DNA from: Streptomyces sp. NBC_01497
GTDB taxonomy: Bacteria > Actinomycetota > Actinomycetes > Streptomycetales > Streptomycetaceae
NCBI RefSeq assembly: GCF_036250695.1
Contig: NZ_CP109427.1
Span: 7,254,001-7,318,000, forward strand
DNA length: 64,000 nucleotides
Reading direction: 5' to 3'
The notes under the pieces are model-generated. The model was not told the origin of the DNA. It saw only the letters and a program-made list of their open reading frames with translations, and made no database searches. This document shows, in pieces, positions 2,970 to 58,216 of this stretch (within the stretch, counting starts at the first letter, position 1; every line of letters begins with the position of its first letter). The position numbers and the translations under genes are program-made.

Positions 2970-2991
2970 TCGTCTACGCGAGAGTAGACGA
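2970..2991. promoter_or_regulatory. BlaI-type operator (N6 class) of the PAP2 gene
   Basis: Arms TCGTCTAC and GTAGACGA are perfect inverted repeats around a 6-base spacer. The arms and spacer length are identical to the site at 8147-8168, and the CTAC/GTAG core with the 6-base spacer recurs at 6095, 58182 and 58201. BlaI/MecI repressors bind TAC/GTA dyads. Confidence 0.7.
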
Positions 2992-3149
2992 TGAATTCCG
3001 GGTGGCCAAATCATGAACGAAGGACGAACGCAAGGGGTTCCCGGGTCCCGGGGCGCCGCAGGAGCGGCCACCGCGCGTGGCGGCCGGGGCCTGCCGGGCG
3101 GCACCCGCGCCGGTCCGGCCGGGCGGTGGCGGGGCTCACCGTGCGGGTG

Positions 3150-4940
3150 TCAGTGGGCGTGCGTGGTCGGCAGGAGCGCTGTGGTGATGGTCATCGGCCC
3201 GTCCGTCACGGCGATCAGATGCACGGGCACGTGAGGGCCGCGCGGCACCGCGTACAGGCCGTGCGGCGGACGCAGGACGTACGAGGCCGACGCGTGCGGG
3301 CCGAGGGTCCCGGGTCCGGACCTGACCGGCCACCAGGCGGACGCCCCCTGCCCCGCCCGGCTCGCGAAGTGCGGGGTGAGCCGGACGCCGGTGGTGTTCT
3401 CGGCCCGTACGGCCAGCGAGGTGACGCCGTGCCGGGCGCCCTCCGCGAACCGTGCGGTGACCTTCATGCGCAGCGGAGGCGGGCTCGCGGCCGCCACTGT
3501 CGCGCACAGTGCGGCGGGCAGGACGAGAGCGGCCGCGAGGGCGACGCGCCCCCGGCGGCCGGCGAGGGGCCGCGGCAGGCGGGGCCGCCACGCCGTCGCG
3601 AGCGCGCCGGCCGGCACGGTGGCGGCCGCCGCCAGCCACAGCGGTGTCATCAGCAGGAAGTAGCCGTCCTGCGAGCGGGTCGCCAGATAGAAGGGGAGCC
3701 AGGGCAGCACGGTCAGCGCGGGGCCGAGCCGCCGGATGAACAACGTCAGCGCGGCCAGCAGCCCCAGCAGCAGCAGGAGGCTCGCGTACGAGTAGAAGGC
3801 CAGGTGCGCACTGCCCGAGGTGAAGTAGTACGAGATGCCCATCAGGCCCTGGCCGTGCAGCATCGCCCCCTGGGTCATCGGCAGGAGCAGCCCCTTGAAC
3901 CACGCGGGGACGTCCTGGACCGCGACGTAGGCGTTGACGAGCAGCCAGGTCAGCGCGGCGGACCCGGCGTAGCGCGCGGTGAGGGCGAGGGCGGCGGGGG
4001 CCGTCCGGCCGCCCGGCGTGGTGGCGCCCGCGGCAAGATCGCCGCGCCGGACGGCGTAGATGCCGATGAGGAGGAACGGGGCCAGGAACCAGGCCAGTTG
4101 CTGGGCGGCGCAGGCCGCGCCGAGGCAGCAGGCGCGCAGCACCCCGTACCGCCCGAGCCGGCCGCCCGCGCCGGTCCCCGGCCAGCGCACCACGGCCGGG
4201 ACGAGCAGGGCGAACGCGATCAGGGCGGGATAGCCGGCGCGCGCGTAGTGCGGCAGCAGGCCGAAGCCCAGGCACACGGCGGTCGCGGCGGAGCGCCACG
4301 GCGCGGGCAGCAGTTTCCAGAGGGTGACGGTGCCCGCGACCAGGGCCCCGCTCGTCACCAGGGTCGCGGCCGCCGTGGAGTGCACGATCAGCCGTACGGG
4401 CGCGGTCAGCAGGGCCGCCAGCGGCGGATAGGCGTACGTGTAGTCGCCGCCGCCCCCCATGGTCTTCGTCAGGCCGACCCGGGGTGTGCCGAACAGCCAC
4501 GGCCAGGGGCTGCCGTAGACGGGCCGGCCGTGCAGGATCTCCGTCGCCGCCTGCGCGGTCAGCACGCCTTCGTCGGTGCCCCCGTGATCGAGCCAGTAGG
4601 CGCACACCGCCAGGGCGACGGCCACGGCGAGCACGGCCGCGTCCACCCGGCCCAGTGCCCGGCGCCCGCGGACGCACAGGGCGAGGACGCCGCAGAGGAG
4701 GATCGCGGCGTAGCAGAGGGAGATGGCCCCGGCGACCGGCGGGTCGAACCGCATGGCGGTCGTCCAGGTGGCGCGGGTGCCGATGAAGAGACTGGCGGTC
4801 GCGAGGATCGTCATCCCCCGATGCCACTGCGGGGGAGAGGCGCCCGGGGCGGAGCCGTCCGGCGGAGCGCTCTGGGCGGACGGGCCGGCCGGCCGCCGGG
4901 GGCCGGGTCTCTCCGCGTGAGTGGGCATGGTGTCGTCCAC
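3150..4940 (-). CDS. Polytopic membrane glycosyltransferase, GT87/DUF2029-like
   Basis: A 596-residue protein with roughly ten or more membrane segments. It resembles GT-C fold, polyprenyl-phosphate-sugar-dependent glycosyltransferases of the GT87 (DUF2029) group. Supporting marks are an acidic extracytoplasmic loop after the first helices (LDHGGTDEGVLTAQ), the following GDYTYAYPPLAALLTAP, and a soluble C-terminal domain of about 100 residues after the last helix. The GTG at 4940 follows AAGGAAG with a 5-base spacer; an in-frame ATG lies 12 bases downstream. A CTAC-N5-GTAG palindrome sits 42-54 bp upstream. The acceptor is unknown; GT87 relatives transfer mannose onto lipoglycans, so an envelope role is likely. 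A GT39-type enzyme is an alternative. Confidence 0.68.
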   Translation of the reverse strand: MDDTMPTHAERPGPRRPAGPSAQSAPPDGSAPGASPPQWHRGMTILATASLFIGTRATWTTAMRFDPPVAGAISLCYAAILLCGVLALCVRGRRALGRVDAAVLAVAVALAVCAYWLDHGGTDEGVLTAQAATEILHGRPVYGSPWPWLFGTPRVGLTKTMGGGGDYTYAYPPLAALLTAPVRLIVHSTAAATLVTSGALVAGTVTLWKLLPAPWRSAATAVCLGFGLLPHYARAGYPALIAFALLVPAVVRWPGTGAGGRLGRYGVLRACCLGAACAAQQLAWFLAPFLLIGIYAVRRGDLAAGATTPGGRTAPAALALTARYAGSAALTWLLVNAYVAVQDVPAWFKGLLLPMTQGAMLHGQGLMGISYYFTSGSAHLAFYSYASLLLLLGLLAALTLFIRRLGPALTVLPWLPFYLATRSQDGYFLLMTPLWLAAAATVPAGALATAWRPRLPRPLAGRRGRVALAAALVLPAALCATVAAASPPPLRMKVTARFAEGARHGVTSLAVRAENTTGVRLTPHFASRAGQGASAWWPVRSGPGTLGPHASASYVLRPPHGLYAVPRGPHVPVHLIAVTDGPMTITTALLPTTHAH

Positions 4941-4981
4941 AGCGGCTTCCTTACGTGGTGCGAGCAACCCGGCAGTTGCTA

Positions 4982-4994
4982 CTACATCATGTAG
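4982..4994. promoter_or_regulatory. BlaI-type operator (N5 class) of the GT87-like gene
   Basis: CTACAT-C-ATGTAG is a perfect inverted repeat. On the minus strand it reads CTACATGATGTAGTAG, matching the layout CTAC-A-N4-GTAGTAG of the site upstream of blaI-1 at 17111-17126. The spacer is 5 bases, unlike the 6-base spacer of the other sites. Confidence 0.6.
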
Positions 4995-5077
4995 ATGGAA
5001 TGTGCGCGCGCCGGGTTCCGCGCATCGGGTGAGGCGCCGCGCCCGTCGCGTGGGGCGCCGCCGCCGTTGTGCCCGGC

Positions 5078-5131
5078 GTACAGCAGGCGCCCGACGTGCC
5101 CGCCGTACAGCAGGCGCCCGACGCGCCCGGC
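5078..5131. repeat. Two 27-bp direct repeats
   Basis: Two adjacent copies (25 of 27 bases identical) beginning GTACAGCAGGCGCCCGACG, between the GT87-like start and the fetB remnant. They do not fall in a recognisable gene. Confidence 0.6.
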
Positions 5132-5152
5132 GCGCGCGCCACGCCCGACTCC

Positions 5153-5877
5153 TCACGCGGGGGGCCGCTGCGGCCCGCCGCGCGCCACCGTCTCGGTCGT
5201 CACGCTCACGGCCGCCGTCTGAACGGCCATCGGGGCGATCGGGACGAACAACCGCACCGCCCCTGCCATGATCGGGCTCGCGCTGCCCGGCAGCACCCCG
5301 ACGAAAGCGCCGGGGAGGGTGACGAGCCCGATGGTCCTGGTCTGGTCGAGCCCCGGCCACCTGTGCGTCGCAAGCGGCCGGACGGACGGCCTCCAGCCGG
5401 GCGACCGGGTCCAGGAATCCCAGGGACAGGGCCGCCTCCACCTCACCGCGGCGGTGCGTCGGCTCGTCCGGTGCGCGCCGCCCGGCCAGGACGGTGGCGG
5501 TGGGCGCGCCGCCCAGCAGGATGCCCGCGACGGGGACCGGCGCGATGCCCTTCAGCGGGACGAGCCCGGCCGGCGCGGCGCGGCCGCGACCGGGGCGGTC
5601 CCGCGGCGATCGGAACGGCTGTCAGCCACCACGACCGGTCGGGCGTGAGCCTGCGTCCCGCCGTGCGCGCCGCCGTGGCGAGCATCAGCAGGAGGAAGGC
5701 CGCCAGGGCCCGGAGTGAGCGGATCACCCAGGTGATCACCACGGAGACGGCGGCCGGCTGCACCGCCGCCCGCGGGCCGGCCGGCGCGATCTGCCGCCAC
5801 GGGGGAGGGCCGGTCTCCGGGCCGAGGTGGTAGCGGGCGCAGACGACGACCGCCGCGGGCAGCAGGACCGCCGGCAT
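5153..5877 (-). pseudogene. Frameshifted fetB-like (UPF0014) ABC permease remnant
   Basis: Three pieces in different frames line up with one FetB/UPF0014 permease, the membrane half of an iron-export ABC transporter. The first piece (from 5877) reads through RAAVQPAAVSVVITWVIRSL and WWLTAVPIAAG. After a shift near 5600 comes LVPLKGIAPVPVAGILLGG and EVEAALSLGFLDPVARLEA. After a second shift near 5360 comes LDQTRTIGLVTLPGAFVGV to the stop. Together they cover nearly the full family length with family motifs in the right order. No fetA ATPase gene is adjacent. Two shifts in one gene argue for true decay rather than one sequencing slip, but that cannot be settled here. Confidence 0.75.
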
Positions 5878-6094
5878 GATGCCGGGCGTCGGGTTGACGG
5901 GCGGGAGTCAGGACGCGGTGACCTTCGTGTGGCGCATGGTGCCGTCCCTTTCCTCTTCGTCGGGGGGCGTAGGCCGTTCGCGTTGTTTCGCGGCCGATGC
6001 GGCGCCGGTGGCGCGGCGCCGGGGCCGGGTCCGGGGTCGACTGGGGTCCATCGATGGTGCCGGGCCGGTCGTGCCGGTGGCCGGGCGCTATCGA

Positions 6095-6108
6095 CTACAG
6101 TGTTGTAG
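6095..6108. promoter_or_regulatory. BlaI-type operator (N6 class) upstream of dedA
   Basis: CTACA-GTGT-TGTAG, i.e. CTAC-N6-GTAG, between the fetB remnant (minus) and the DedA gene (plus). It is about 110 bp upstream of the chosen DedA start. Confidence 0.65.
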
Positions 6109-6218
6109 ACATTCGTGGAACGGCTCCGCCCGCCGGTCGAAGCCGCCTGTCACACGCACCGGGCGGCGGTCCTCGTGCACCGCGCCCCGGCCGCCCCATG
6201 ATGAGAAGGTCCCCGCCG

Positions 6219-6887
6219 ATGGCCGTACCCCTGTTCACCGCGACACAGCTCGCGGTGAATCTGCTCGACGCCCGCTCCGTGCTCTCCGCGTTCGGTGTCC
6301 TCGGCATCGCCCTGGTGATGTTCGCCGAGACGGGTCTGCTGATCGGGTTCTTCCTCCCGGGTGACTCGCTGCTGTTCACCGCGGGACTCCTGTGCGCCGG
6401 TACGTCGGGCCACGGGCCCACGATGTCGCTGCCGCAGGTGATCGTCGCCTCGGTTGCCGGGGCGCTGGCCGGAGCGCAGGTCGGATACGTACTGGGCCGG
6501 CGCGGGGGCCGGGCGCTGCTGGAGCGCAGCCGCTCCGCACGGCTGCGGGAGGGTGCCGTCAGGGCGGAGGAACTGCTCGAACGGTACGGGCACGCCAAGG
6601 CGATCGTCCTCGCCCGGTTCATCCCGGTCGTGCGGACCGTGCTCAACCCCCTCGCCGGCGTGCTCGACGTGCCGCCGCGCACGTTCGCCGTTTGGCAGGC
6701 CGCCGGTGGGCTGGTGTGGTCGGCGGGCCTCGTGGTCGCGGGATACGTGCTCGGTTCCTCGGTGCCGAACGTCGACCGGTACCTGCTGCCGATCATCGCG
6801 CTGATCGTCGTCGTGTCCCTGGTGCCGCTCGGGGTCGAACTGCTCAGGTCCCGCAGGCGCGCGGCGCGCGAGGGCGGCGTGAGCTGA
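6219..6887 (+). CDS. DedA-family membrane protein
   Basis: A 222-residue protein of the DedA/SNARE-associated family. Members have been shown to be transporters of polyprenyl-phosphate and other lipids; several act as undecaprenyl-phosphate flippases. Visible signatures are the re-entrant loop GLLIGFFLPGDSLLFTAG, the ALAGAQVGYVLGRRGG segment, and the ARFIPVVRTVLNPLAGVLDV motif with the conserved F-x-P-x-x-R. Five or so hydrophobic segments are present. The ATG at 6219 follows GAGAAGG with a 9-base spacer; in-frame ATGs at 6198 and 6201 are possible. It shares a CTAC-N6-GTAG operator type with PAP2 and uppP, which fits a role in lipid-carrier recycling. Confidence 0.9.
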   Translation: MAVPLFTATQLAVNLLDARSVLSAFGVLGIALVMFAETGLLIGFFLPGDSLLFTAGLLCAGTSGHGPTMSLPQVIVASVAGALAGAQVGYVLGRRGGRALLERSRSARLREGAVRAEELLERYGHAKAIVLARFIPVVRTVLNPLAGVLDVPPRTFAVWQAAGGLVWSAGLVVAGYVLGSSVPNVDRYLLPIIALIVVVSLVPLGVELLRSRRRAAREGGVS

Positions 6888-7094
6888 CGAGCCGCGCCCC
6901 CGTCCGAGCGGAGCTTGAGCCGGAACGGGCGAGGCGGCGGTGTCCCGGCGGCGCCCGGGGGAGGGCGCGCCGCCGGGCTCCCGGTCACCGGGCACCCGGT
7001 CCACGGTGCTGCCGCGCCGCCGGGCTCCCGTCCCAGGGCTGCCGCGTCGCCGGGCCCCGGTCCCGCCGGGCATCCGTGCCACCGGGCGCCCGTG

Positions 7095-8111
7095 TCACCA
7101 GTGGCGCGGGGCGCTCTCGGCCGCACCGTCCGTTCCCTCTCCGTTGCGGAGCGGCGCGTCGGGCCCGGCACCGCCGCGGAGCGCGGGGGCGGTCGGCGTG
7201 CCGTACGGGCGTCCGCCGGGCGTGGTGTCCGGCGCGCGGTCCGGGGAGTCGGCCCGGCTCACCGCCAGCCAGACGACCAGCGCGGCGATCGGGACCGCGA
7301 GTGCCAGGCTCACAGGGCCGGTGCCCCAGCCCAGCCCACCGCGGGCGCTGCCCACGCCCATCCAGTCGGCGAACGACGCCCCGAGGGGCCGGGTCAGGAT
7401 GTAGGCCCACCAGAACGCGGCCACGGAGTTGAGCCCGAGGAAGCGCCATGCGAGGGCGGGGATCATGATCATGGCGGCGAACAGGATGCCCGCCGGCAGG
7501 TAGCCGAGGCCCAGGCTGCCAGCGGTCAGATCGCCCGCGGCCGTGCCGAGAGCGAAGGTGGCAAGGACGGTGGACCAGTAGAAGTACTCCCTGCGGCGGG
7601 TGCGCACGGCGTGGATGGAGAGCGTGCCCTCCACGGCGTACCAGGCCATCAGGACGGCGGCCAGGATCACCGCGAACGCCACGGTGGAGACCGCGTACGG
7701 GATGCCCGCCACGACGTGCACCACATCGGCGGCCATGGTGCCGAAGACGCTCACCATGACGATCGCCGACCAGTACGCCCAGGCGCGGTAGCGGGGCGTG
7801 CGCAACTGCAGCCAGAGCAGCACGGCCAGACCGACGGCGCCGAGCGCGCCCGCGACGACCGGCCCGAGCGTCTTCGCCAGGAAGTCCGAGGTCGTCTCGC
7901 CCATGCCGGTCGTGAGGATCTTGACCACCCAGAACACCGCCGCGACGGCGGGAACCTTGATCGCCCCGGTGGCTCCCGCGCGGTTCGCCCTGCCGGCGGG
8001 CCCCGCGCCGCCGGCGGCCGTCCGCCCGGACGGTCCGCCGCCCGGTCGCCGATGCCTCGGTGCCGGCTCGGTCCTCGCGCCGCCGTCGGGTTGATTCGTC
8101 ATCACCTTCAC
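7095..8111 (-). CDS. COG4705-type membrane protein with four internal repeats
   Basis: About 338 residues. The first 45 are basic and disordered, followed by about eight membrane helices. The body matches COG4705 (uncharacterised membrane-anchored proteins), starting with KVPAVAAVFWVVKILTTGMG. Four helix pairs each carry a short G-plus-acid motif: GETTSDF, GTMAADV, GTAAGDL and GASFADW, so the protein looks like a fourfold duplication. The function of the family is not known. The GTG at 8111 lies behind a weak GGA; an ATG four codons in is an alternative. The CTAC-N6-GTAG operator 36-57 bp upstream has the same 8-nt arms as that of the PAP2 gene. Confidence 0.75.
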   Translation of the reverse strand: MKVMTNQPDGGARTEPAPRHRRPGGGPSGRTAAGGAGPAGRANRAGATGAIKVPAVAAVFWVVKILTTGMGETTSDFLAKTLGPVVAGALGAVGLAVLLWLQLRTPRYRAWAYWSAIVMVSVFGTMAADVVHVVAGIPYAVSTVAFAVILAAVLMAWYAVEGTLSIHAVRTRRREYFYWSTVLATFALGTAAGDLTAGSLGLGYLPAGILFAAMIMIPALAWRFLGLNSVAAFWWAYILTRPLGASFADWMGVGSARGGLGWGTGPVSLALAVPIAALVVWLAVSRADSPDRAPDTTPGGRPYGTPTAPALRGGAGPDAPLRNGEGTDGAAESAPRHW

Positions 8112-8146
8112 CGTTCCGGCGCCGGGCGCCGTCGTGTCCGTCGTTG

Positions 8147-8168
8147 TCGTCTACGAGACTGTAGACGA
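8147..8168. promoter_or_regulatory. BlaI-type operator (N6 class) of the COG4705 gene
   Basis: TCGTCTAC-gagact-GTAGACGA, a perfect 8-bp inverted repeat. The arms match 2970-2991 exactly although the spacer bases differ, which argues for selection on the arms. Confidence 0.7.
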
Positions 8169-8368
8169 TAGAAAGGACGGAGGTCGGCGCCGCGCGGTTC
8201 CGGCCGTCGGGGCCGGGGGGCGGTGTCCGCCGAGCGGCGCACGCTGCGCGCCCCGGGTTCCGGTCGGTCCTGCGGGCGGCGGCGGGAAGTGGGGGGCGCT
8301 GCCGGGAAGCGGGGGCGCCGCCGGTTCGCCCGTCCGGGTTCAGGGAGCTTTGTCACACCGGACCCTGC

Positions 8369-8407
8369 TTGACGCGTCAATCATTCGCCATATGATTGAC
8401 ACGTCAA
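8369..8407. promoter_or_regulatory. Promoter with two TTGAC-NN-GTCAA operators
   Basis: Two 12-bp palindromes, TTGACGCGTCAA (8369-8380) and TTGACACGTCAA (8396-8407), are themselves arranged as a 16-bp inverted repeat with one mismatch around a 7-base centre. On the plus strand TTGACG and TATGAT (8391-8396) make a -35/-10 pair with a 16-base spacer. The minus strand holds TTGACG-N16-AATGAT. The operators thus cover the -35 and follow the -10. The layout is typical of MarR- or TetR-type repression of the FMN reductase; no such regulator is adjacent. Confidence 0.7.
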
Positions 8408-8600: not shown

Positions 8601-9173
8601 ATGACCAAGATCGGCATCATCCTCGGCAGTACCCGCCCGGGACGCAACGGCGAGGCCGTCGCCAAGTGGGTCCTCGACATCGCCAGGCAACGTCCCGAGG
8701 CCGAGTTCGAACTCGTCGACCTGCTCGACTTCCCGCTGCCCCACCTCGACGAGGTCGTTCCCCCGTCGCTGGGCCAGTACCAGAACGATCACACCAAGGC
8801 CTGGGCGGCCAAGATCGCCGAGTTCGACGGGTACATCTTCGTCACGCCCGAGTACAACCACTCGACGTCGGGCGTACTGAAGAATGCGATCGACTACCTG
8901 TACAAGGAGTGGAACAACAAGGCCGCGGCCTTCGTCAGCTACGGCGGCGTGGGCGGCGCCCGTGCCGTGGAGCACCTCCGCCTCATCATGTCCGAGCTGC
9001 AGGTCGCCCACGTGCGCGCCCAGGTGGCGCTGTCCCTGATGACGGAGTTCGAGAACTTCAGCGTCTTCAAGCCCGGCGACTACCAGCTGCCGGCCGTCGA
9101 GACAATGCTCGACCAGCTCATCGCCTGGACGAAGGCTCTGGAGCCCCTGCGCGGCGACGCGGCGTCCGCCTGA
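8601..9173 (+). CDS. NAD(P)H-dependent FMN reductase family protein
   Basis: A 190-residue flavodoxin-fold reductase (NADPH-dependent FMN reductase/quinone and azo reductase group) that reduces flavins or quinones with NAD(P)H. The FMN phosphate loop is GSTRPGRNGEAV near residue 9. The second FMN-contact segment TPEYNHSTSGVLKNAIDYL lies near residue 81, and YGGVGGARA lies near residue 115. Full length and cytosolic. The ATG follows GAAAGGAA. The strongly palindromic promoter about 200 bp upstream suggests induction, perhaps by electrophiles or quinones. The physiological substrate is unknown. Confidence 0.9.
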   Translation: MTKIGIILGSTRPGRNGEAVAKWVLDIARQRPEAEFELVDLLDFPLPHLDEVVPPSLGQYQNDHTKAWAAKIAEFDGYIFVTPEYNHSTSGVLKNAIDYLYKEWNNKAAAFVSYGGVGGARAVEHLRLIMSELQVAHVRAQVALSLMTEFENFSVFKPGDYQLPAVETMLDQLIAWTKALEPLRGDAASA

Positions 9174-17110: not shown

Positions 17111-17126
17111 CTACAGGCCGTAGTAG
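17111..17126. promoter_or_regulatory. BlaI-type operator (N5 class) of blaI-1
   Basis: CTAC-aggcc-GTAGTAG, about 50-60 bp before the blaI-1 start. The same CTAC-A-N4-GTAGTAG layout occurs in the site in front of the GT87-like gene. Probably the autoregulatory site of the BlaI/M56 pair. Confidence 0.6.
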
Positions 17127-17173: not shown

Positions 17174-17557
17174 GTGAGCGGAGACGGCACGGCGCCGCCG
17201 GGCAGGCGGGCGCGGGGGCAGCTGGAGAGCGAGGTGCTCGGTGCCCTGTGGGCGGCGGGCGGCCCCGCGTCGGCCGCGACGGTACGCGAACAGGTCGATG
17301 GCGATCCCGCCTACACGACGGTGCTGACCATCCTGTCCCGGCTGTACGAGAAGGGGCTCGTCACCCGCGAACGCGCGGGCCGCGGCTACCTGTACACGCC
17401 GGTGCGGGACGAAGCCGGGCACACCGCGGCGGGCATGCGCGCGCTGCTGGAGAAAGGCGGCGACCGGGCCGCGGTGCTGGCCCGTTTCGTCTCCGAACTC
17501 CCCGCGGAGGACGAGCGGCTGCTCGAACAGCTGCTGCGTGCGGCGACCGAGGACTGA
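17174..17557 (+). CDS. BlaI/MecI-family repressor (copy 1)
   Basis: A 127-residue winged-helix repressor of the Penicillinase_R family. The DNA-binding half reads LESEVLGALWAAGGPASAATVREQV followed by the wing YTTVLTILSRLYEKGLV, and the C-terminal half is the dimerisation region. Relatives are inactivated when a membrane metallopeptidase senses a signal and triggers cleavage. The M56 peptidase gene lies 376 bp downstream on the same strand, the classical pairing. The GTG follows GGGAG. A CTAC-N5-GTAG site lies in its promoter. It shares the DNA-recognition region type with the second copy at 58241 but is clearly a separate paralogue. Confidence 0.92.
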   Translation: MSGDGTAPPGRRARGQLESEVLGALWAAGGPASAATVREQVDGDPAYTTVLTILSRLYEKGLVTRERAGRGYLYTPVRDEAGHTAAGMRALLEKGGDRAAVLARFVSELPAEDERLLEQLLRAATED

Positions 17558-17933
17558 CAGCGGGCGAGCGCGTACGTGCCGGCGACGTGGAGCCGGCCGC
17601 CGGAACGGCCGGTCGACGCCGCGCCGCGAGCCTCGTGCGCCGGGCATGCCCTGCGACCCGTATGCCCTGGTCCGTGACGTTGTGCCCCGTGCCCCCTGCC
17701 CTGTGCCCCGTGCCCCGTGCCCCGTCCCGGGACCGTGACCGCCGGCCTCACGTCGTCAGCCACAGGCCGCGGCGGTACCTTCAGCTGTCACCGACCCCGG
17801 CACCCCACCCGCACCGGTCACGAGGGTGCCGGCCACCGGACCCTGCCCCCCGCAAGCACCGGACTCCCGGCATCCGGACACCCGCACAGGTCCCGACGCG
17901 GACCCCGACGACGGCCGAAGAGGACTGGGACAC
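17558..17933. other. Low-complexity spacer between blaI-1 and the M56 gene
   Basis: No gene seen. Around 17685-17745 the sequence is an imperfect short repeat of the form GTGCCCC/TGCCC, a likely site of slippage. Whether blaI-1 and the M56 gene share a transcript is uncertain because of this gap. Confidence 0.5.
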
Positions 17934-18869
17934 ATGCGGATCGCTCTGTGCACACCCCTCGCGGTCAGCGCCGTGCTGGCCCTGACCGCGCCCGGCGCGG
18001 CCCGGCGGCTGCCACCGCGGATGGCGTCCTGGCTGCTGGCAGTGGCTTCCGTCATCGCGGGCGGCGGCTGGGCCGCGGCACTGGGCATGCTCGCCTTCAC
18101 GCTGATCGACCGCTTCCCCGACCTCGCAGCCGAGGGCGGCTGGTCGTCCGGAGTGCTGGTCGCGCACACCCCGATCGGCTGGCCGGTGGGCGTGGTGTGC
18201 GCCGCGACGCTCGTGGTGTGCGCCGCTCTGCTCGTCACGTCCGCCAGCCGCAGGACACGGTTGCTTCTCGCCGCCCGGCGCGAGGGCAGGCTCCTGCCTC
18301 CCGGCGGGGAACTGGCGGTGGTGGACGATCCCCAGCCGGGCGCCTACGCCCTGCCGGGCACGCCGGGGCGCATCGTGGTGACGTCCGGCATGCTGCGCAC
18401 GCTGAACGCCCGTGAGCGCAGCGCCCTGCTGGCCCACGAACGGACCCATCTGCGCCACCGCCACCACCTCTTCCTGCTGGTGCTGCACCTCGCGGCCGCG
18501 GTCGACCCGCTGCTGCGGCCCGTCGCCACCGCGGGTGCGTTCGCCCTGGAGCGCTGGGCCGACGAGGACGCGGCGGCGGCTCTCGCCGACCGTCCCCTGG
18601 TGGCCCGCGCGGTCGCCCGCGCCGCGCTCGCGGCGGCCCACCGCCCGCAGCCGGGGCTCGCGGTCACGGGCGGGCCCGTCCCGCAGCGGGTGCGCGCCCT
18701 GCTGGCCCCGCCACCGCCGATGCGGCGCCACCTGATCCTCGCCCACGCCGCGTTGCTGTTCGCCTGCTGCGTCAGCCTGGTGCTGTCCGCCCAGGACATG
18801 GACCAGATCTTCGACATGGCGGGTGCCCCGGCCCGGGCCGCGGCACCCTGCCACCACGCGCGGAGCTGA
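17934..18869 (+). CDS. M56-family membrane metallopeptidase (BlaR1-like sensor half)
   Basis: A 311-residue protein with three N-terminal membrane helices, then a zinc peptidase site LLAHERTHLRHRHH (HExxH near residue 166), another helix (LFLLVLHLAAAVDPLL), the distal EERWADEDAAA-like segment ALERWADEDAAAAL, and a last helix near the C-terminus. It lacks any penicillin-binding sensor domain. It is thus of the short actinobacterial M56 type that pairs with BlaI proteins. Predicted to relay an envelope signal by removing BlaI-1. The signal is unknown. ATG chosen at MRIALCTPLAV, with a weak GGGA upstream. Confidence 0.88.
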   Translation: MRIALCTPLAVSAVLALTAPGAARRLPPRMASWLLAVASVIAGGGWAAALGMLAFTLIDRFPDLAAEGGWSSGVLVAHTPIGWPVGVVCAATLVVCAALLVTSASRRTRLLLAARREGRLLPPGGELAVVDDPQPGAYALPGTPGRIVVTSGMLRTLNARERSALLAHERTHLRHRHHLFLLVLHLAAAVDPLLRPVATAGAFALERWADEDAAAALADRPLVARAVARAALAAAHRPQPGLAVTGGPVPQRVRALLAPPPPMRRHLILAHAALLFACCVSLVLSAQDMDQIFDMAGAPARAAAPCHHARS

Positions 18870-18884: not shown

Positions 18885-19166
18885 GACCGACGGCCGCGGG
18901 AGCCCGTCGTACCCGCACCGACGGCGTGCACGGCACTGCGCCGCCGTCGGTACGGAGCGCCGCCGGGATGGCTCCCGTGACCGACGGCCGCAGGAGCCCG
19001 TCGTACCCGCACCGACGGCGTGCACGGCACTGCGCCGCCGTCGGTACGGAGCGCCGCCGGGATGGCTCCCGTGACCGACGGACGCGAGAGCCCGTGGTAC
19101 CCGCACCGACGGCGTGCACGGCACTGCGCCGCTGTCGGTACGGAGCGCCGCCGGGACGGCTCCCGG
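18885..19166. repeat. Three 94-bp tandem repeats, each a large hairpin
   Basis: Units start at 18885, 18979 and 19073 and differ at only a few positions. Each contains an inner stem ACCGACGGCG/CGCCGTCGGT and an outer pair GGGAGCC/GGCTCCC, so each can fold into one long hairpin. They lie between convergent genes (M56 peptidase and PaaI-like thioesterase), and may act as a triple terminator or be an amplified small palindromic element. Confidence 0.9.
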
Positions 19167-52330: not shown

Positions 52331-52381
52331 CTGTCGGGTCACGTTCGTTTGTGTTTTATTCGGAGCCCCGCGGGAGGGGTC

Positions 52382-53734
52382 ATGAAGCTTTTCTCGACTG
52401 ACGGTCGACGATCGGGACCCGGCATACCCATACCCGACATGCCGTCCATGTCCCGGCGGTCCGTGCTTCGTGGCGCCGCTCTGGGCGCCGGAGTGGTCGC
52501 CGCAGGACCGCTTCTCACCGCTTGCGGTGGCAGCAGCGGAAGTTCGGGCGGATCGGGTGGCAAGACGGTCACGTTCGGTTCCAACGCCGCGGTGCCGCAG
52601 CCGAAGGGGGCGTATGTCAACGTCTTCGCCGCCGCCAAGAAGGCCACCGGCCTGACGGTCAAGCCAAACTGGGTCGACCACAACACCTTCCAGCAGAACA
52701 TCTCCAGCTATCTGCAGGGAAACCCGGACGATGTGTTCAACTGGTTCGCCGGTGAGCGCATGCAGTTCTTCGCGGGCCAGGGCCTCGCCAGCAACGTCGA
52801 CGACGTCTGGAAGAACATCGGTGCCAACTACACCGACGCGATGAAGGCCCAGAGCAAGGCGCCGGACGGGCACTACTACCTCGTGCCCTTCGACTACTAC
52901 CCGTGGGCCGTCTTCTACAGCAAGAGCCTGTTCAAGGCCAAGGGGTACACCGTCCCCACCACCTGGGACGAGTACATCGCGCTGGCGAAGAAGATGAAGG
53001 GCGACGGCATCACCCCCATCGCCTTCACCAACAAGGACGGCTGGCCGTCCATGGGTACGTTCGACTACCTGAACATGCGCATCAACGGGTTCGACTTCCA
53101 CATCGACCTGATGCGCAAGGGCGACAAGTGGAACACCCCCCAGGTCAAGGCCACTTTCGACCACTGGAAGCAGCTGATCCCGTACTACTCCCCGGGGTTC
53201 GCCGGCCAGACCTGGCAGGAGGGCGCCCAGTCCCTCGTCAACCAGAAGGCCGGCATGATGGTGCTCGGCCTCGACCAGATCGGCACGATCTTCACCGGTG
53301 ACAAGGCCGCGGACCTCGGTCTGTTCGCCTTCCCGGAGATCGACCCGCAGTACGGCCAGACCGCCGTCGAGGCGCCCATCGACGGCTTCATGGTGTCCAA
53401 GTCGCCCAAGAACAAGGACGGCGCGAGCAAGCTCCTGAGCTACCTCGGCACCGCCAAGGCGCAGCAGCTGTGGCTCGGCACCAACCCGGCGGACGTCGCG
53501 ACCGCCAACGGAGTCGACACCTCGAAGTACACACAGCCGCAGAACGACGCGGTCAAGCTGATCACCGGGGCCAAGAGCCTGTCGCAGTTCATGGACCGCG
53601 ACACGCGGCCCGACTTCGCGGACCCGGTCATGATCCCGGCGATCCAGAAGTTCCTGAACAGCCCGGGTGACATCGCCTCGATCCTGTCGAACGTGGACAA
53701 GCAGGCCAAGACCATCTGGGCGAGCGGCAACTGA
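52382..53734 (+). CDS. ABC transporter sugar-binding lipoprotein
   Basis: A 450-residue extracellular solute-binding protein (family 1, carbohydrate type). After about 20 residues comes SRRSVLRGAALGAGVVAAGP and a lipobox LTAC, with twin arginines just before, so export by Tat and lipid anchoring are likely. The mature part has a Ser/Gly linker and a periplasmic-binding fold with GNPDDVFNWFAGERM. GGGAGGGG lies 2 bases before the ATG. First gene of a three-gene operon with two permeases. The sugar is unknown. Confidence 0.93.
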   Translation: MKLFSTDGRRSGPGIPIPDMPSMSRRSVLRGAALGAGVVAAGPLLTACGGSSGSSGGSGGKTVTFGSNAAVPQPKGAYVNVFAAAKKATGLTVKPNWVDHNTFQQNISSYLQGNPDDVFNWFAGERMQFFAGQGLASNVDDVWKNIGANYTDAMKAQSKAPDGHYYLVPFDYYPWAVFYSKSLFKAKGYTVPTTWDEYIALAKKMKGDGITPIAFTNKDGWPSMGTFDYLNMRINGFDFHIDLMRKGDKWNTPQVKATFDHWKQLIPYYSPGFAGQTWQEGAQSLVNQKAGMMVLGLDQIGTIFTGDKAADLGLFAFPEIDPQYGQTAVEAPIDGFMVSKSPKNKDGASKLLSYLGTAKAQQLWLGTNPADVATANGVDTSKYTQPQNDAVKLITGAKSLSQFMDRDTRPDFADPVMIPAIQKFLNSPGDIASILSNVDKQAKTIWASGN

Positions 53735-53836
53735 CCTGCCTGCTCACCCCTTTGGGCCGGATGCGGCGCTCACGAAACCGTGGGCGCCGCACCCGGCCCG
53801 TACGGCAGTGCCCGGTGTGAAAACGACGAGGAACAC

Positions 53837-54787
53837 ATGACTGTTGTGGACGGCGCGGCGGCGCCGCGGACCACGCCCCCCAAGACCAAGCGGCGCCATC
53901 TCAAACAGCTCACCGCGCGGGACCGGGTGAGCCTCAGCCTGATGGCCGGCATCCCGACCCTGCTCACCGTGGCGTTCGTGTGGGTGCCCGCCCTGGCATC
54001 GATCGTCCTGTCGTTCTCCAGCTGGACCGGGTTCGGCGACTTCTCCACGATCCAGTGGGTCGGCACCGAGAACTACAAGAACATCTTCACGATCTACCCG
54101 CCCTTCGACCCGGCCATCGAGCACAACCTCATCTGGCTCGCGGTCTTCTTCGTGCTGCCCGCGCCGTTCGGCCTCTTCCTCGCGGTCCAGCTGGACAAGC
54201 AGATCCGGTTCTCCCGGATCTACCAGTCCGTCCTGTTCCTGCCCGTGGTGCTGTCCCTCGCGCTGATCGGCTTCATGACCGAGCTGATCTTCTCGCCCAC
54301 CCAGGGGCTGATCAACAACCTGACGGGGCACGCGGACCACCACGTCATCGACTGGATGGGCAATCCCCACCTGAACATCTGGGCCGTCATGATCATGGCC
54401 TGCTGGCGCCAGGCCGGCTATGTGATGGTGCTCTTCCTCGCGGGCCTCAAGAGCGTCGACCCCTCGCAGAAGGAAGCGGCGGCACTCGACGGCGCGAACG
54501 GCTCCCAGACCTTCCGGCACGTGGTCTGGCCGGCGCTGCGCCCCATCAATGTCGTGGTGCTGGTCATCACGGTCATCGAGTCGCTGCGCGCCTTCGACAT
54601 CGTCTACGTCATCAACAAGGGCACGAACGGCCTTGAACTGCTGTCCGTGCTGGTGACCGACAACATCGTCGGAGAGGCCAGCCGTATCGGCTTCGGCTCG
54701 GCACTGGCGACGATCCTCCTGGTGATCTCGCTGGCCTTCATCGTGCCGTACCTGATCAGCATGTTCCGGAAGGACGAGCGAGAATGA
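53837..54787 (+). CDS. ABC sugar permease, MalF-type
   Basis: A 316-residue inner-membrane permease with six helices. The coupling (EAA) loop is EAAALDGANGSQTFRHVVWP near residue 215, which docks the ATPase. GAGGAA lies before the ATG. It overlaps the next gene by ATGA. Works with the binding protein upstream and the MalG-type permease. There is no ATPase gene; the shared Streptomyces ATPase MsiK may serve it. Confidence 0.93.
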   Translation: MTVVDGAAAPRTTPPKTKRRHLKQLTARDRVSLSLMAGIPTLLTVAFVWVPALASIVLSFSSWTGFGDFSTIQWVGTENYKNIFTIYPPFDPAIEHNLIWLAVFFVLPAPFGLFLAVQLDKQIRFSRIYQSVLFLPVVLSLALIGFMTELIFSPTQGLINNLTGHADHHVIDWMGNPHLNIWAVMIMACWRQAGYVMVLFLAGLKSVDPSQKEAAALDGANGSQTFRHVVWPALRPINVVVLVITVIESLRAFDIVYVINKGTNGLELLSVLVTDNIVGEASRIGFGSALATILLVISLAFIVPYLISMFRKDERE

Positions 54788-55704
54788 CGACGCTGACGAC
54801 CGAGCGCACCGGGCCCCGCACCGCCGCGCCCGCCCCCCGGGGCGAGCGCCCCCCGCGAGCCGGCCGTGTCGCCCTGCACGTCTTCCTGATCGGCACGTGC
54901 GTCGTCTGGCTGCTGCCGCTGCTGTACGCCTTCTACACGGCGCTGCGGCCGTACGCCGACACCCAGCGCCTCGGATACGTGTCCGTCGGCGGCCACTACG
55001 GGTTCGGCAACTTCACCGCCGCCTGGGACCAGGCGCAGCTCCTGCACTACTTCTGGAACTCGGTCATCATCACGGTGCCCGCGCTGGTGATCACACTCTG
55101 GCTGTCGAGCATGGTCGCCTTCGTCGTGGCGCGGTTCAACTTCAAGGTGAACATCGCGCTGCTGATGCTGTTCACCGCCGGCAACCTGCTGCCGCAACAG
55201 GCTCTGATCACGCCGCTGTTCAAGATGTACCAGCTGATACCGCTGCCCGAGTGGCTGGCGGCGTCCGGCAAACTGGACGACTCCTTCCTCGGCCTCATCC
55301 TGATCCACGTCGCGTTCCAGACCGGTTTCTGCGCCTTCGTGCTCTCCAACTACATGCGCACGATCCCCAAGGAACTGGGCGAGGCCGCGCTCGTGGACGG
55401 TGCCTCCGCCTGGCGGCAGTACTGGCAGCTCGTCCTGCCGCTGTGCCGTCCGGTGCTCGCGGCGCTGGCGACGCTCGAATTCACCTGGATCTACAACGAC
55501 TTCTTCTGGGCGACGGTACTGATGCAGACCGGCAGCAACCGGCCCATCACCGCGGCGCTGAACAACCTCCAGGGGCAGTTCTTCGTCAACAACAACCTCA
55601 TCTCGGCGGCCGCCCTGATCGTGGCGGTCCCCACCCTCGTGGTGTTCTTCGCCCTGCAGAAGCAGTTCGTCTCCGGACTGACCCTCGGCGCGAACAAGGG
55701 CTAG
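54784..55704 (+). CDS. ABC sugar permease, MalG-type
   Basis: A 306-residue permease with a long basic N-terminus, six helices and the EAA loop GEAALVDGASAWRQYWQLVL near residue 200. It overlaps the MalF-type gene by 4 bases. A strong terminator follows 21 bases after the stop, closing the operon without an ATPase or glycosidase gene. Confidence 0.93.
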   Translation: MTTLTTERTGPRTAAPAPRGERPPRAGRVALHVFLIGTCVVWLLPLLYAFYTALRPYADTQRLGYVSVGGHYGFGNFTAAWDQAQLLHYFWNSVIITVPALVITLWLSSMVAFVVARFNFKVNIALLMLFTAGNLLPQQALITPLFKMYQLIPLPEWLAASGKLDDSFLGLILIHVAFQTGFCAFVLSNYMRTIPKELGEAALVDGASAWRQYWQLVLPLCRPVLAALATLEFTWIYNDFFWATVLMQTGSNRPITAALNNLQGQFFVNNNLISAAALIVAVPTLVVFFALQKQFVSGLTLGANKG

Positions 55705-55725
55705 CAGGTCACTGACTTGATCGAT

Positions 55726-55767
55726 GCATCGGGAGTGCCGCGCGGTGTCGCGTGGCACTCCCGATGC
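55726..55767 (+). terminator. Terminator of the sugar ABC operon
   Basis: GCATCGGGAGTGCC and GGCACTCCCGATGC, a perfect 14-bp stem with a 14-base loop directly after the last permease gene. Confidence 0.85.
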
Positions 55768-55860
55768 GCGTAGCAGGGGCAGGACCCCGGCGGCCCCGGC
55801 GGAGCCGGGTGGGGAAAAGTGGGGAAACCGGTGCCGCGTCAGGCAGGCTTCGCCCCGTGG

Positions 55861-56706
55861 TCACGCCTCCTCCGGTCGCCGCGTGTACCGGTGCCGCGTG
55901 CCGAGGACGGGCGCCTGCGCGAAGTCGCCCACCGGGGGGACATCGGCTGACGCGGCAGAGGCCGTATCCCGGCGGAACAGCGCGGTCCACAGGAACGGCA
56001 CACCGAAGAGCGCCGACTCGGGCGGCTCCGCGCGCATGCGGCGCAGCTGGACCTGCGCCAGGTCGGAGAAGATCCAGCGCAGTGACGCGGGCGTGTAGGC
56101 GAGACCGCCGCCCAACGTGCGTTCGCGGTAGAGCTCCGCATCGGAGAGCTCGGAGCCCATCCCCCTCTCGCCTGCGGCGAAGCAGGTGAGGGCGAGATGG
56201 CCGCCGGGGGCCAGGACGCGGTCGAGGAGAGCGAGGTAACCGGCGCGGCGGTGCGGCGGCAGGTGGTGGAAACAGCCTGAGTCGACGACCAGGTCGTAGG
56301 GGCCGCTCAACTCGTCCGCGGGGAGGGCGAAAGCGTCACCGCACAGGAAGCGGACCTCGACGCCGGCCGCGCGAGCCCGTTCCCCGGCCCAGGCGACGGC
56401 CACCGGGGAGAGGTCGACGGCGTCGACGTCAAAACCGTTCGCGGCGAGGTACAGGGCATTGCGGCCCGCCCCGCATCCCAGGTCCAGGGCCGTGCCGGTG
56501 GCGACCAGACCCTGGTCGAGACAGGCAGCCAGGTTCTCGTCGGGCTTCTCCACGAAGAACGGGACCGGCTGTGACCGGTCCGCGTAGAAGCGGTCCCAGA
56601 AACCCTCCCGGTCGCCGGTCGTCGAGCGGCCGGTCGCCGCATCAGATGTGAACAGCCCGTCCAGGAGCGCGAGAACATCCTCGACAGTGCGTACGTTCCG
56701 GTCCAT
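55861..56706 (-). CDS. Class I SAM-dependent methyltransferase
   Basis: A 281-residue methyltransferase. Motif I is ALDLGCGAGRNALYLAANG near residue 95, and the following acidic motif is VDAVDLSPVAVAWA. VDSGCFHHLPPHRR lies near residue 165. This resembles thiopurine/tellurite (TehB)-type or small-molecule methyltransferases. GGGGGG lies a few bases before the ATG. No partner gene in the same unit. Substrate unknown. Confidence 0.9.
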   Translation of the reverse strand: MDRNVRTVEDVLALLDGLFTSDAATGRSTTGDREGFWDRFYADRSQPVPFFVEKPDENLAACLDQGLVATGTALDLGCGAGRNALYLAANGFDVDAVDLSPVAVAWAGERARAAGVEVRFLCGDAFALPADELSGPYDLVVDSGCFHHLPPHRRAGYLALLDRVLAPGGHLALTCFAAGERGMGSELSDAELYRERTLGGGLAYTPASLRWIFSDLAQVQLRRMRAEPPESALFGVPFLWTALFRRDTASAASADVPPVGDFAQAPVLGTRHRYTRRPEEA

Positions 56707-56983
56707 ACGGCCCCCCTCTCGACCGGGATCGAGCATACGAGCGAGGCGGGTGAAGGGCCAGGTCGGACAGTGTTTCGAGACGTCGGGAGCGGGCTGCCGC
56801 GGGCCCAGGACGAGAACAGTGGGCAACCCCGCCCCGGACCCTGCGCCGGCGTCCGGTCAAGCACCCCTCCAGGGCCCGGACGGGGCCGTCCTCAGCCCCG
56901 CGCGGCAGACGATCTCAGGCAATCTCCCACGGCGCTACGGGTCGAACGTCGTCCGACGCGTCAGCAGGTCACGCGCCCGCCGG

Positions 56984-57277
56984 TCAAGCTCGTGGGGATC
57001 GACCGCCCGCGGGTGCCCACGAAGCGGGCCCGGCCCCCGTCCGAGCCGGCGCGTCCCGGGTCCCCCGCGAACGGTCCTCCAGGGCGTGCCGGTGGTTCAG
57101 GAGTTCCGCCGCGCACTCCTCGGCGCGATGGTCCTCGCCGCACTCGCGTGCCTGCGCGCACTGGCGTACCAGGGCGGCACACACGGCACAGCCCTTCCCC
57201 GCCTCCCCGGCCCCCTCGGCCGCGCCGTCGGGCGCGTCGGGCCCTTCGGCGCCAGGCGGCTTCGACCGGGTTCTCAC
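56984..57277 (-). CDS. Small Cys-containing protein coupled to uppP
   Basis: A 97-residue protein. Its core, CAVCAALVRQCAQARECGED followed by HRAEECAAELLNHRH, resembles short uncharacterised Streptomyces proteins with a CxVC pair and an N-H-R-H end; it could bind a metal. Both ends are low-complexity. The GTG overlaps the uppP stop codon (GTGA), so it is translated with uppP. The remaining stretch to the methyltransferase gene (56707-56983) shows no gene. Function unknown; its coupling to uppP hints at a role in the same response. Confidence 0.55.
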   Translation of the reverse strand: MRTRSKPPGAEGPDAPDGAAEGAGEAGKGCAVCAALVRQCAQARECGEDHRAEECAAELLNHRHALEDRSRGTRDAPARTGAGPASWAPAGGRSPRA

Positions 57278-58110
57278 GCGCTCAGCACCCCCGTACCGAG
57301 CAGTCCGAGCAGCAGCACTCCCACGACGATCCGGTAGATCACGAAGGCGTTGAACGAGTGGCGGGCGACGAACCGCAGGAGCCAGGCGATGGACCCGTAC
57401 GCCACGACGAACGAGACCGCGGTGCCGACGGCCAGCGGGGCCGCGCCCACCCCCGTGCCGAGCGCGTCCTTGAGCTCGTAGATCCCGGCGCCGGTCAGGG
57501 CCGGGATGCCGAGGAAGAACGAGAGCCGGGTGGCCGCCATCCGGTCGAGGTCGAGGACGAGGGCGGTGGACATGGTGGCGCCGGAGCGGGAGAAGCCTGG
57601 GAAGAGGAGCGCCAGGATCTGTGAACAGCCCACCAGCATCGCGTCCTTGAAGGACGTGTCGTCCTCGCCGCGCTTGTGGCGGCCCATCTGGTCGGCCGCC
57701 CACATCACGCCGCTGCCGGCGATGAGGGAGCCCGCGACCACCCACAGGGAGGCGAGCGGCCCGTCGATCAGGGGTTTGGCCGCCAGGCCCACGACCACGA
57801 TCGGGACCGTCGCCGCGATCACCCACCACGCGAACTTGTAGTCGTGGTGGTAGCGCTCCTCCTTGTGCAGCAGGCCCCGGCCCCAGGCGCCGATGATGCG
57901 CACGAGGTCCTTGAAGAAGTACACGATGCAGGCGGCGATCGCGCCGACCTGGATGACCGCGGAGAAGCCCACCACCGAAGCGTTCTCGACGGGGATGTTC
58001 ATCAGGCCCTCGGTGATCTTCAGGTGTCCGGTGGAGGAGACCGGGAGGAACTCGGTCACCCCTTCCACGACACCGAGCACGGCGGCCTGGCCAACGCTGA
58101 TAGCACTCAC
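57274..58110 (-). CDS. uppP: Undecaprenyl-diphosphatase UppP (BacA family)
   Basis: A 278-residue membrane enzyme that dephosphorylates undecaprenyl diphosphate to recycle the cell-wall lipid carrier. The two active-site motifs are intact: EGVTEFLPVSSTGHL near residue 18 and LLFPGFSRSGATM near residue 170. About eight helices. The GTG at 58110 follows AGGAC with a 6-base spacer and removes about 20 codons of non-conserved sequence that would precede it. Two CTAC-N6-GTAG operators lie 70-106 bp upstream, shared with the divergent blaI-2. Bacitracin targets the substrate, so bacitracin-like stress is a possible trigger. Confidence 0.95.
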   Translation of the reverse strand: MSAISVGQAAVLGVVEGVTEFLPVSSTGHLKITEGLMNIPVENASVVGFSAVIQVGAIAACIVYFFKDLVRIIGAWGRGLLHKEERYHHDYKFAWWVIAATVPIVVVGLAAKPLIDGPLASLWVVAGSLIAGSGVMWAADQMGRHKRGEDDTSFKDAMLVGCSQILALLFPGFSRSGATMSTALVLDLDRMAATRLSFFLGIPALTGAGIYELKDALGTGVGAAPLAVGTAVSFVVAYGSIAWLLRFVARHSFNAFVIYRIVVGVLLLGLLGTGVLSA

Positions 58111-58178
58111 GGAGCTGTCCTGGTGGAGAGGGGGACGGAGGTGGGAGGGGCGTGTGACAGACTCGGAAAACACGGCAG

Positions 58179-58216
58179 CTTCTACACCGCCGTAGAAGTT
58201 CTACACGACTGTAGAA
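58179..58216. promoter_or_regulatory. Two BlaI-type operators (N6 class) between uppP and blaI-2
   Basis: CTTCTAC-accgcc-GTAGAAG (58179-58198) and TTCTAC-acgact-GTAGAA (58199-58216) follow one another with a 19-bp centre-to-centre distance. They share the CTAC-N6-GTAG pattern of sites near 2970, 6095 and 8147. Between divergent genes, they fit autoregulation of blaI-2 and control of uppP. Confidence 0.8.

What the first reader, a model, noticed from the sequence alone, without database searches (positions are those of the whole stretch)
2970..58216. A shared CTAC-N6-GTAG operator links lipid-carrier genes into a likely BlaI regulon
Seen: CTAC-N6-GTAG inverted repeats at 2974-2987 (PAP2), 6095-6108 (DedA), 8151-8164 (COG4705), 58182-58195 and 58201-58214 (uppP/blaI-2). 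In three of the five the arms extend to 7-8 bases. Known: BlaI/MecI proteins bind TAC/GTA dyads; UppP removes phosphate from undecaprenyl diphosphate, PAP2 proteins can do the same, and DedA proteins include undecaprenyl-phosphate flippases. Inferred: one BlaI (copy 2, at 58241) coordinates carrier recycling in response to envelope stress. I know of no description of such a regulon.
Basis: partly seen in the sequence, partly recalled or inferred. Interest (0 to 1): 0.9.

Follow-up and report, generated by a model that had tools for sequence, protein, structure and literature searches.

The report
Three BlaI switches for envelope lipids

Summary
Observation confirmed: all five CTAC-N6-GTAG dyads are at the stated places (0.09 expected by chance). 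They look like conserved operators. Around BlaI-type genes in 127 loci, N6 dyads number 111 in 33.6 kb upstream of those genes against 18 in the other 641 kb. They precede 29 of 29 orthologues of the window's DedA and 0 of 20 core DedA paralogues.

The one-regulator reading fails. Three dialects follow three BlaI clades: TTCTAC-N6-GTAGAA (BlaI-2, uppP); G(T/A)CTAC-N6-GTAG(A/T)C (BlaI-3, outside the window at 674.6 kb; dedA and PAP2 genes); CTAC-N5-GTAGTAG (BlaI-1; a glycolipid-synthase-like operon and membrane proteins). The PAP2, DedA and DUF347 sites carry the BlaI-3 dialect. Of 41 genomes with this DedA class, 34 lack a close BlaI-2 and 39 have BlaI-3.

Best reading: parallel BlaI/M56-protease modules, with no beta-lactam sensor domain detected, repress undecaprenyl-phosphate recycling and envelope-lipid genes. 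Binding, signal and induction are inferred. No description was seen in the open-access listings searched. New variant of a known kind.

The parts
2972..2989 (.). N6 operator, BlaI-3 dialect (GTCTAC/GTCTAC), before PAP2a
   Evidence: assigned to BlaI-3 by 3.3 bits
2194..2907 (-). PAP2a lipid phosphatase gene
4979..4994 (-). spacer-5 operator, BlaI-1 dialect (CTACATGATGTAGTAG on the - strand), 60 bp before the next gene
3150..4928 (-). uncharacterised polytopic membrane protein, conserved in Streptomyces, no Pfam or NCBIfam match
6093..6110 (.). N6 operator, BlaI-3 dialect (GACTAC/GTCTAC), before dedA
   Evidence: conserved at 29 of 29 orthologues
6219..6887 (+). DedA of the undecaprenyl-phosphate flippase type by key residues
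8149..8166 (.). N6 operator, BlaI-3 dialect (GTCTAC/GTCTAC), before DUF347
   Evidence: found at 3 of 29 other DUF347 loci
7095..8102 (-). DUF347 membrane protein gene
17111..17126 (+). spacer-5 operator (CTACAGGCCGTAGTAG) before blaI-1
17174..17557 (+). BlaI-1, Penicillinase_R repressor
17826..18869 (+). M48/M56-type membrane protease downstream of blaI-1 (HERTH)
58180..58197 (.). N6 operator 1 of a 19-bp-spaced pair between uppP and blaI-2 (TTCTAC/TTCTAC)
58199..58216 (.). N6 operator 2 of the pair, BlaI-2 dialect
57274..58110 (-). UppP, undecaprenyl-diphosphate phosphatase
58241..58624 (+). BlaI-2, Penicillinase_R repressor without a protease partner here

Best explanation
The dyads are operators of BlaI/MecI-type repressors. 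Three paralogous BlaI modules, each in relatives usually paired with a membrane M48/M56-type metalloprotease, read three operator dialects and share out envelope-lipid genes. BlaI-3 (674.6 kb, outside the window) represses itself, dedA, two PAP2 genes and, in this strain, DUF347 through GTCTAC/GACTAC-N6 dyads. BlaI-2 represses itself and uppP through a tandem TTCTAC-N6-GTAGAA pair. BlaI-1 represses itself, a glycolipid-synthase-like/polysaccharide-deacetylase operon, an ABC transporter and polytopic membrane proteins through CTAC-N5-GTAGTAG. Proposed mechanism (inferred): a BlaI dimer sits on a dyad over or near the promoter; envelope damage activates the membrane protease, BlaI is cut or released, and undecaprenyl-phosphate recycling and envelope-lipid remodelling rise. 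Shown here: sites, conservation, match of dialect to clade, gene neighbourhoods. Inferred: binding, repression, signal, proteolysis.
For: Sites against chance. N6 dyads 111 in 33.6 kb upstream of BlaI-type genes v 18 in 641 kb elsewhere in the same 127 loci, 2 of them own. DedA orthologues: 29 of 29 with N6, 24 of 29 as a tandem pair 19 bp apart; core DedA paralogues 0 of 20, a second DedA class 0 of 20. Dialects: outer G in 83 of 84 BlaI-3 half-sites v 2 of 24 (BlaI-2 core), 4 of 26 (other BlaI-2-like) and 0 of 42 (fourth clade); leave-one-out classification 73 of 75 over three classes; the window PAP2, DedA and DUF347 sites and the distant PAP2b site all assigned to BlaI-3. BlaI-1 clade: spacer 5 in 9 of 9 non-own proteins; BlaI-2 core: exact N6 in 22 of 29, 1-3-mismatch versions at a similar distance in the other 7. 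Neighbourhood within 1.4 kb: BlaI-3, 37 proteins: M56 31, PAP2 24, DedA 20; BlaI-2 core, 29: M56 27, UppP 17, DedA 10; BlaI-1, 9: M56 9, glycolipid-synthase-like 5. DedA class with BlaI-3 in 39 of 41 genomes v 8 of 109 without. BlaI-3 differs in the recognition-helix region (ARTTV v AYTTV or YSTV/YSSV; that this helix contacts DNA is recalled). Precedent: C. thermocellum BlaI binds GTCTAT inverted repeats in paired arrays (PMC8457756 section 25).
Against: No binding, expression or induction data. Genome-wide, bare-core sites exceed other spacers only about two-fold, and the tool's reversed-pattern control is higher than the pattern. The DUF347 site is present at 3 of 29 other DUF347 loci. The PAP2a site is assigned to BlaI-3 by only 3.3 bits, and 58182 scores best as the fourth clade, 3.7 bits over BlaI-2. 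Two of 37 BlaI-3 proteins and 15 of 25 other BlaI-type proteins outside the four clades have no exact site. One near relative (L125) has no spacer-5 site before its copy of the membrane protein, and L058 none before its glycolipid-synthase-like gene. Related sequences inflate the significance values. FTR1 iron permease genes share the dedA intergenic region in some genomes, which fits a pure lipid theme less well.
Confidence: 0.8

Rival explanations
1. One reading: one repressor, BlaI-2, controls PAP2, DedA, DUF347 and uppP together.
For: All five share the CTAC-N6-GTAG core, and BlaI-2 is in the same window. In some relatives BlaI-2 stands beside DedA as well as UppP (10 and 17 of 29).
Against: Arm bases differ by dialect. 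34 of 41 genomes with the DedA class lack a close BlaI-2. Where DedA adjoins a core BlaI-2 the operator arms are TTCTAC or TCCTAC type in the examples seen, where it adjoins BlaI-3 GTCTAC/GACTAC.
Confidence: 0.07
2. Cross-talk: the BlaI paralogues all bind CTAC dyads to some degree, so the three groups form one overlapping regulon with graded preferences.
For: Shared core in all groups; mixed half-sites near some BlaI-2-like genes, e.g. L072, L085, L077, L088. BlaI-2 has no M56 partner here and might depend on another module's protease.
Against: Sharp separation of the outer base (83 of 84 v 6 of 92) and of spacer 5 v 6 by clade suggests selection for distinct reading.
Confidence: 0.2
3. The dyads are operators of some other regulator family that happens to be co-located.
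For: No binding experiment exists for these proteins.
Against: Sites concentrate upstream of BlaI-type genes and the dialect tracks the BlaI clade; BlaI of C. thermocellum binds similar repeats.
Confidence: 0.03
4. The five dyads are chance matches.
For: Most other bare-core hits in the genome look like background.
Against: 0.09 expected; conservation at 29 of 29 DedA orthologues.
Confidence: 0.01

Closest known systems
BlaI/BlaR1 and MecI/MecR1 of Bacillus licheniformis and Staphylococcus aureus
   Same: Penicillinase_R repressor, divergent organisation, membrane metalloprotease partner, several operators between divergent genes (PMC3305447 passages); the profile matches MecI and penicillinase-repressor structures.
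   Different: No beta-lactam sensor domain detected in the two protease partners of this genome; the neighbouring genes are lipid-carrier and envelope-lipid genes; wider spacing than the TACA/TGTA site cited for BlaI/MecI.
BlaI (Rv1846c) of Mycobacterium tuberculosis
   Same: Closest solved structure, 2g9w (that 2g9w is Rv1846c is recalled); an actinobacterial BlaI reported to control the atp operon (PMC5874750 passage).
   Different: The primary paper (Sala 2009) was not read here; no undecaprenyl-cycle regulon appears in the passages seen.
BlaI_0696 and BlaI_1845 of Clostridium thermocellum
   Same: GTCTAT/GACTAT repeats in paired arrays, autoregulation, two paralogues with similar but distinct motifs (PMC8457756 section 25).
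   Different: Five-base spacing for GTCTAT; small regulons interpreted there as beta-lactam responses; no lipid-carrier targets named in that section.
CopY/CopR copper repressors
   Same: Same superfamily; operator RNYKACANNYGTMRNY (PMC7253601 passages); weak CopY_TcrY match of BlaI-3, 31.6 bits v cut-off 121.95.
   Different: No cysteines in BlaI-1, -2 or -3, hence no C-terminal CXC motif; wider half-site spacing.

Membership tests
BlaI/MecI (Penicillinase_R) repressors | Penicillinase_R domain over the Pfam cut-off | tested here: met
   BlaI-1, -2, -3: 83.2, 74.8, 88.1 bits v cut-off 22.6
BlaI/MecI (Penicillinase_R) repressors | Inverted repeat at the own promoter | tested here: met
   (sequence only)
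BlaI/MecI (Penicillinase_R) repressors | Dimeric binding and repression | not testable with these tools
   needs EMSA or expression data
BlaR1/MecR1 signalling pair | Adjacent membrane metalloprotease with HExxH | tested here: met
   BlaI-1 and BlaI-3 yes (HERTH, HERAH); not met for BlaI-2 in this genome, though 27 of 29 close relatives have one
BlaR1/MecR1 signalling pair | Extracellular penicillin-binding sensor domain | tested here: not met
   none matched in the two partners, 347 and 319 aa, 5 and 4 hydrophobic segments (Pfam for both; NCBIfam for one)
CopY/CopR | C-terminal CXC copper motifs | tested here: not met
   0 Cys in BlaI-1, -2, -3
COG0586 DedA undecaprenyl-phosphate flippases | Acidic and basic residue pairs of the two re-entrant helices | tested here: met
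   E37/D49 and R133/R139 at the spacings of YghB E39/D51 and R130/R136; UptA models match only below cut-off
COG0586 DedA undecaprenyl-phosphate flippases | Flippase activity | not testable with these tools
   biochemistry needed
UppP/BacA | NCBIfam equivalog over cut-off | tested here: met
   371.9 bits v 308
PAP2 undecaprenyl-diphosphatase | PAP2 domain and catalytic motifs | tested here: met
   PAP2 domain in both. PAP2a has all three motifs; in PAP2b the first (K-x6-RP) was not found by the pattern used
PAP2 undecaprenyl-diphosphatase | Substrate class | tested here: inconclusive
   NCBIfam undecaprenyl-diphosphatase models match below cut-off

The most novel reading that the evidence does not exclude
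Streptomyces carries a family of parallel, largely insulated BlaI/M56 sensing modules, each with its own operator dialect (arm bases and spacer), that split the undecaprenyl-phosphate cycle and envelope-lipid remodelling into separately induced sub-programmes for different membrane or lipid-carrier insults. A fourth module, with TerD/TerB-family genes, exists in relatives. This would be a sensory system built from the beta-lactamase repressor family but devoted to lipid carriers rather than beta-lactams.
Probability: 0.45. Interest if true: 0.82.

Novelty: new variant of a known kind. Interest (0 to 1): 0.73.

Why it matters
How bacteria adjust the supply of the undecaprenyl-phosphate carrier is only partly understood, and the redundancy of DedA genes has been put down to possible environmental or regulatory specialisation (PMC10127716 section 6). 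Here one DedA class is tied to a BlaI-type operator at 29 of 29 loci while 20 of 20 core paralogues have none. That gives a named candidate regulator, named sites and swap experiments that can be run at once in harmless Streptomyces. It also takes the BlaI family beyond beta-lactam resistance and offers a set of paralogous repressors and operators for studying how specificity diverges.

Tried and rejected
Single BlaI-2 regulon: rejected on dialect and phyletic grounds. Chance: rejected. CopY-type copper control: no Cys. Core DedA paralogues as regulon members: 0 of 20. A second DedA class (about 60% identity): 0 of 20 for spacers 5 and 6. BlaI-4 (3.539 Mb): no dyad of the kinds scanned near it. 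One-mismatch matches to GTCTAC-N6-GTAGAC: besides the DedA site nine others, 5 of them GTCGAC-type, not followed. Structure of the membrane protein at 3150-4928: mean pLDDT 57.3, too poor to use, no fold search made; I called it GT39a in scripts, a label from memory that no search supports. Literature: no such regulon in the listings for BlaI with undecaprenyl, DedA, PAP2, M56, TerD or bacitracin, most with Streptomyces; only open-licence PMC papers are held and the lists were capped.

Corrections and choices. In one search the queries M56_1, ABC and BlaI3 were in a wrong frame through my coordinates; they were re-derived, and only matches of the other queries are used. Half-site counts: one search includes own sites (87 of 88 for BlaI-3), one search leaves them out (83 of 84). 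The 127 loci include two own loci. The table was typed from the per-genome listings with E-value cuts of 1e-44, 1e-80 and 1e-34 chosen by eye; it uses handles G000-G149 and drops the further genomes; genomes without a listed match, some not named in the listings, count as lacking the gene. In one search the 13 sites of nine other BlaI-2-like loci were left out of the three-class test. Clades were set by bit-score cuts and, for the fourth, by the tree, which has few columns for its 128 rows and many open forks.


Full report
WHAT WAS CHECKED. The window is G000:C1:7254001-7318000 of a 9.08-Mb genome whose nearest relatives by protein are Streptomyces. Their genes are PAP2, DedA/VTT, DUF347, BacA/UppP and a Penicillinase_R protein. 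The whole genome has 22 N6 sites. CTAC-Nk-GTAG with k from 2 to 12 totals 127; k=5 gives 20 and k=6 gives 22, leaving 85 for the nine other spacers, 9.4 each. The bare core is therefore only about two-fold above other spacers genome-wide, and the tool's reversed-pattern control (other words) is higher still. What stands out is the local clustering and the long arms: GTCTAC-N6-GTAGAC occurs three times exactly, at 2972, at 8149 and before another PAP2 gene at 415.8 kb.

MORE OF THE SAME THING. Spacer-5 dyads lie before the membrane protein at 3150-4928 (site 4979-4994) and before BlaI-1 (17111). A second cluster at 415.7-419.9 kb has spacer-5 sites before a glycolipid-synthase-like gene followed by a polysaccharide deacetylase gene, before an ABC transporter and before another polytopic membrane protein, and an N6 site before PAP2b. 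The glycolipid-synthase label rests on a diglucosyl-diacylglycerol synthase model matched at 98.7 bits, below its cut-off of 500. A third BlaI (BlaI-3), followed by an M48-type protease gene, has an N6 site just upstream at 675.0 kb. In gene orientation the five own spacer-5 sites read CTAC-N5-GTAGTAG, or GTAGTAA in one.

CONSERVATION. A scan of named genomes gave 40 loci of BlaI-2 relatives, including three Microbispora; 23 of 40 have an exact N6 dyad within 250 bp upstream of the match. In 127 loci with BlaI-type genes (125 from other genomes), N6 dyads number 111 in 33.6 kb upstream of those genes and 18 in the remaining 641 kb (the 250-bp windows were placed on BlaI genes only, so some of the 18 lie at other candidate targets). 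DedA orthologues: 29 of 29 with N6 within 300 bp upstream, 24 of them as a pair about 19 bp apart centre to centre, as between uppP and blaI-2 in the window. Controls: 20 core DedA paralogues have no dyad for spacers 2-12 in the gene plus 400 bp each side, and 20 of a second DedA class none for spacers 5 or 6. DUF347 is weaker: 3 of 29 other loci have an N6 site within about 300 bp upstream of the match.

DIALECTS. Half-sites next to BlaI genes separate by clade. BlaI-3: outer G in 83 of 84. BlaI-2 core: 2 of 24, mostly TTCTAC or TCCTAC. Other BlaI-2-like: 4 of 26. Fourth clade (beside TerD/TerB genes in relatives): 0 of 42. By protein: BlaI-1, spacer 5 in 9 of 9; BlaI-3, N6 in 35 of 37; BlaI-2 core, exact N6 in 22 of 29, the other 7 having 1-3-mismatch versions 43-78 bp upstream; fourth clade, 22 of 27; the 25 left over, 10. 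Leave-one-out profiles place 73 of 75 sites correctly among three classes. The window sites at 2974, 6095 and 8151 and the PAP2b site go to BlaI-3 by 3.3, 12.2, 9.0 and 11.4 bits; 58201 goes to BlaI-2 by 7.5; 58182 goes to the fourth clade by 3.7 bits over BlaI-2 and is far from BlaI-3. BlaI-3 proteins carry ARTTV where BlaI-1 and the fourth clade have AYTTV and BlaI-2 YSTV/YSSV, in the region of the recognition helix (that this helix contacts DNA is recalled from MecI/BlaI structures).

WHO REGULATES WHAT. In relatives BlaI-3 with its protease is often divergent from dedA and PAP2 genes, BlaI-2 with a protease from uppP and/or dedA, BlaI-1 with a protease from the glycolipid-synthase-like gene (counts). 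Genome by genome, the DedA class occurs with BlaI-3 in 39 of 41, and BlaI-3 occurs in 8 of the 109 genomes without it; 34 of 41 lack a close BlaI-2 (table typed). So the window's PAP2, DedA and DUF347 sites most likely answer to BlaI-3, about 6.6 Mb away on the contig, and uppP to BlaI-2.

HOW IT LIKELY WORKS. UppP is over its family cut-off. DedA has the acidic and basic pairs described for undecaprenyl-phosphate flippases. PAP2a has its three catalytic motifs and below-cut-off similarity to undecaprenyl-diphosphatases; PAP2b lacks the first motif in the form searched. The two protease partners have HExxH and 5 and 4 hydrophobic segments, and no beta-lactam sensor domain was matched. The window operators lie 34-118 bp, centre to start codon, before their genes, consistent with promoter occlusion; no promoter was mapped. 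The chain from envelope damage through protease activation to loss of BlaI and derepression is inferred from BlaI/BlaR1 (PMC3305447 passages).

COMPARISON AND NOVELTY. BlaI of C. thermocellum binds GTCTAT inverted repeats in paired arrays (PMC8457756 section 25), the nearest experimental precedent met here for these arms and for tandem dyads. The closest solved protein is 2g9w, recalled to be M. tuberculosis BlaI. Searches of open-access papers showed no description of a BlaI regulon for undecaprenyl recycling (titles and abstract openings only). Papers seen beyond the listings: PMC5874750, PMC4757040, PMC3305447, PMC8780764 and PMC7253601 as passages; PMC8457756 as passages and section 25; PMC10127716 as outline and section 6. 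None was read whole.

VERDICT. Real, conserved and richer than a single regulon, but the named regulator is most likely wrong for three of the five sites, and everything beyond sequence is inference.

Noticed in passing
L107-L123 and L164-L183 in part (relatives; Ter-family genes identified at L107, L109, L115, L116, L119, L121, L122): A fourth BlaI clade with N6 sites has TerD/TerB tellurium-resistance-family genes beside it. The five Penicillinase_R matches of this genome are BlaI-1 to -4 and one weak match, so no member was recognised here.
   Followed up: partly
L129, L132, L148: FTR1-family iron permease gene divergent from dedA, with N6 dyads between them.
   Followed up: no
L070:6961-8878; L079:2510-3532: Spacer-5 sites before a lysyl-phosphatidylglycerol-synthase-like gene and before a fatty acid desaturase gene in relatives.
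   Followed up: no
L044:6948 (G000:C1:1113947): CCTAC-N6-GTAGG dyad near the start of a fatty acid desaturase gene in this genome; arms unlike the three dialects, perhaps another regulator.
   Followed up: no
window 8369-8407: TTGACGCGTCAA and TTGACACGTCAA upstream of an NADPH-dependent FMN reductase gene (8601-9173), an operator-like pair of a different kind (read; gene).
   Followed up: no
window 58624-59226: No protease gene was matched beside BlaI-2 here; 27 of 29 close relatives have one.
   Followed up: partly
G000:C1:3538950-3539276 (L040): BlaI-4, a divergent Penicillinase_R protein with a long charged C-terminal tail and no dyad of the kinds scanned nearby.
   Followed up: no
window 18885-19165: A 94-bp unit stands three times head to tail, 96% matches, downstream of the protease gene of the BlaI-1 module.
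   Followed up: partly
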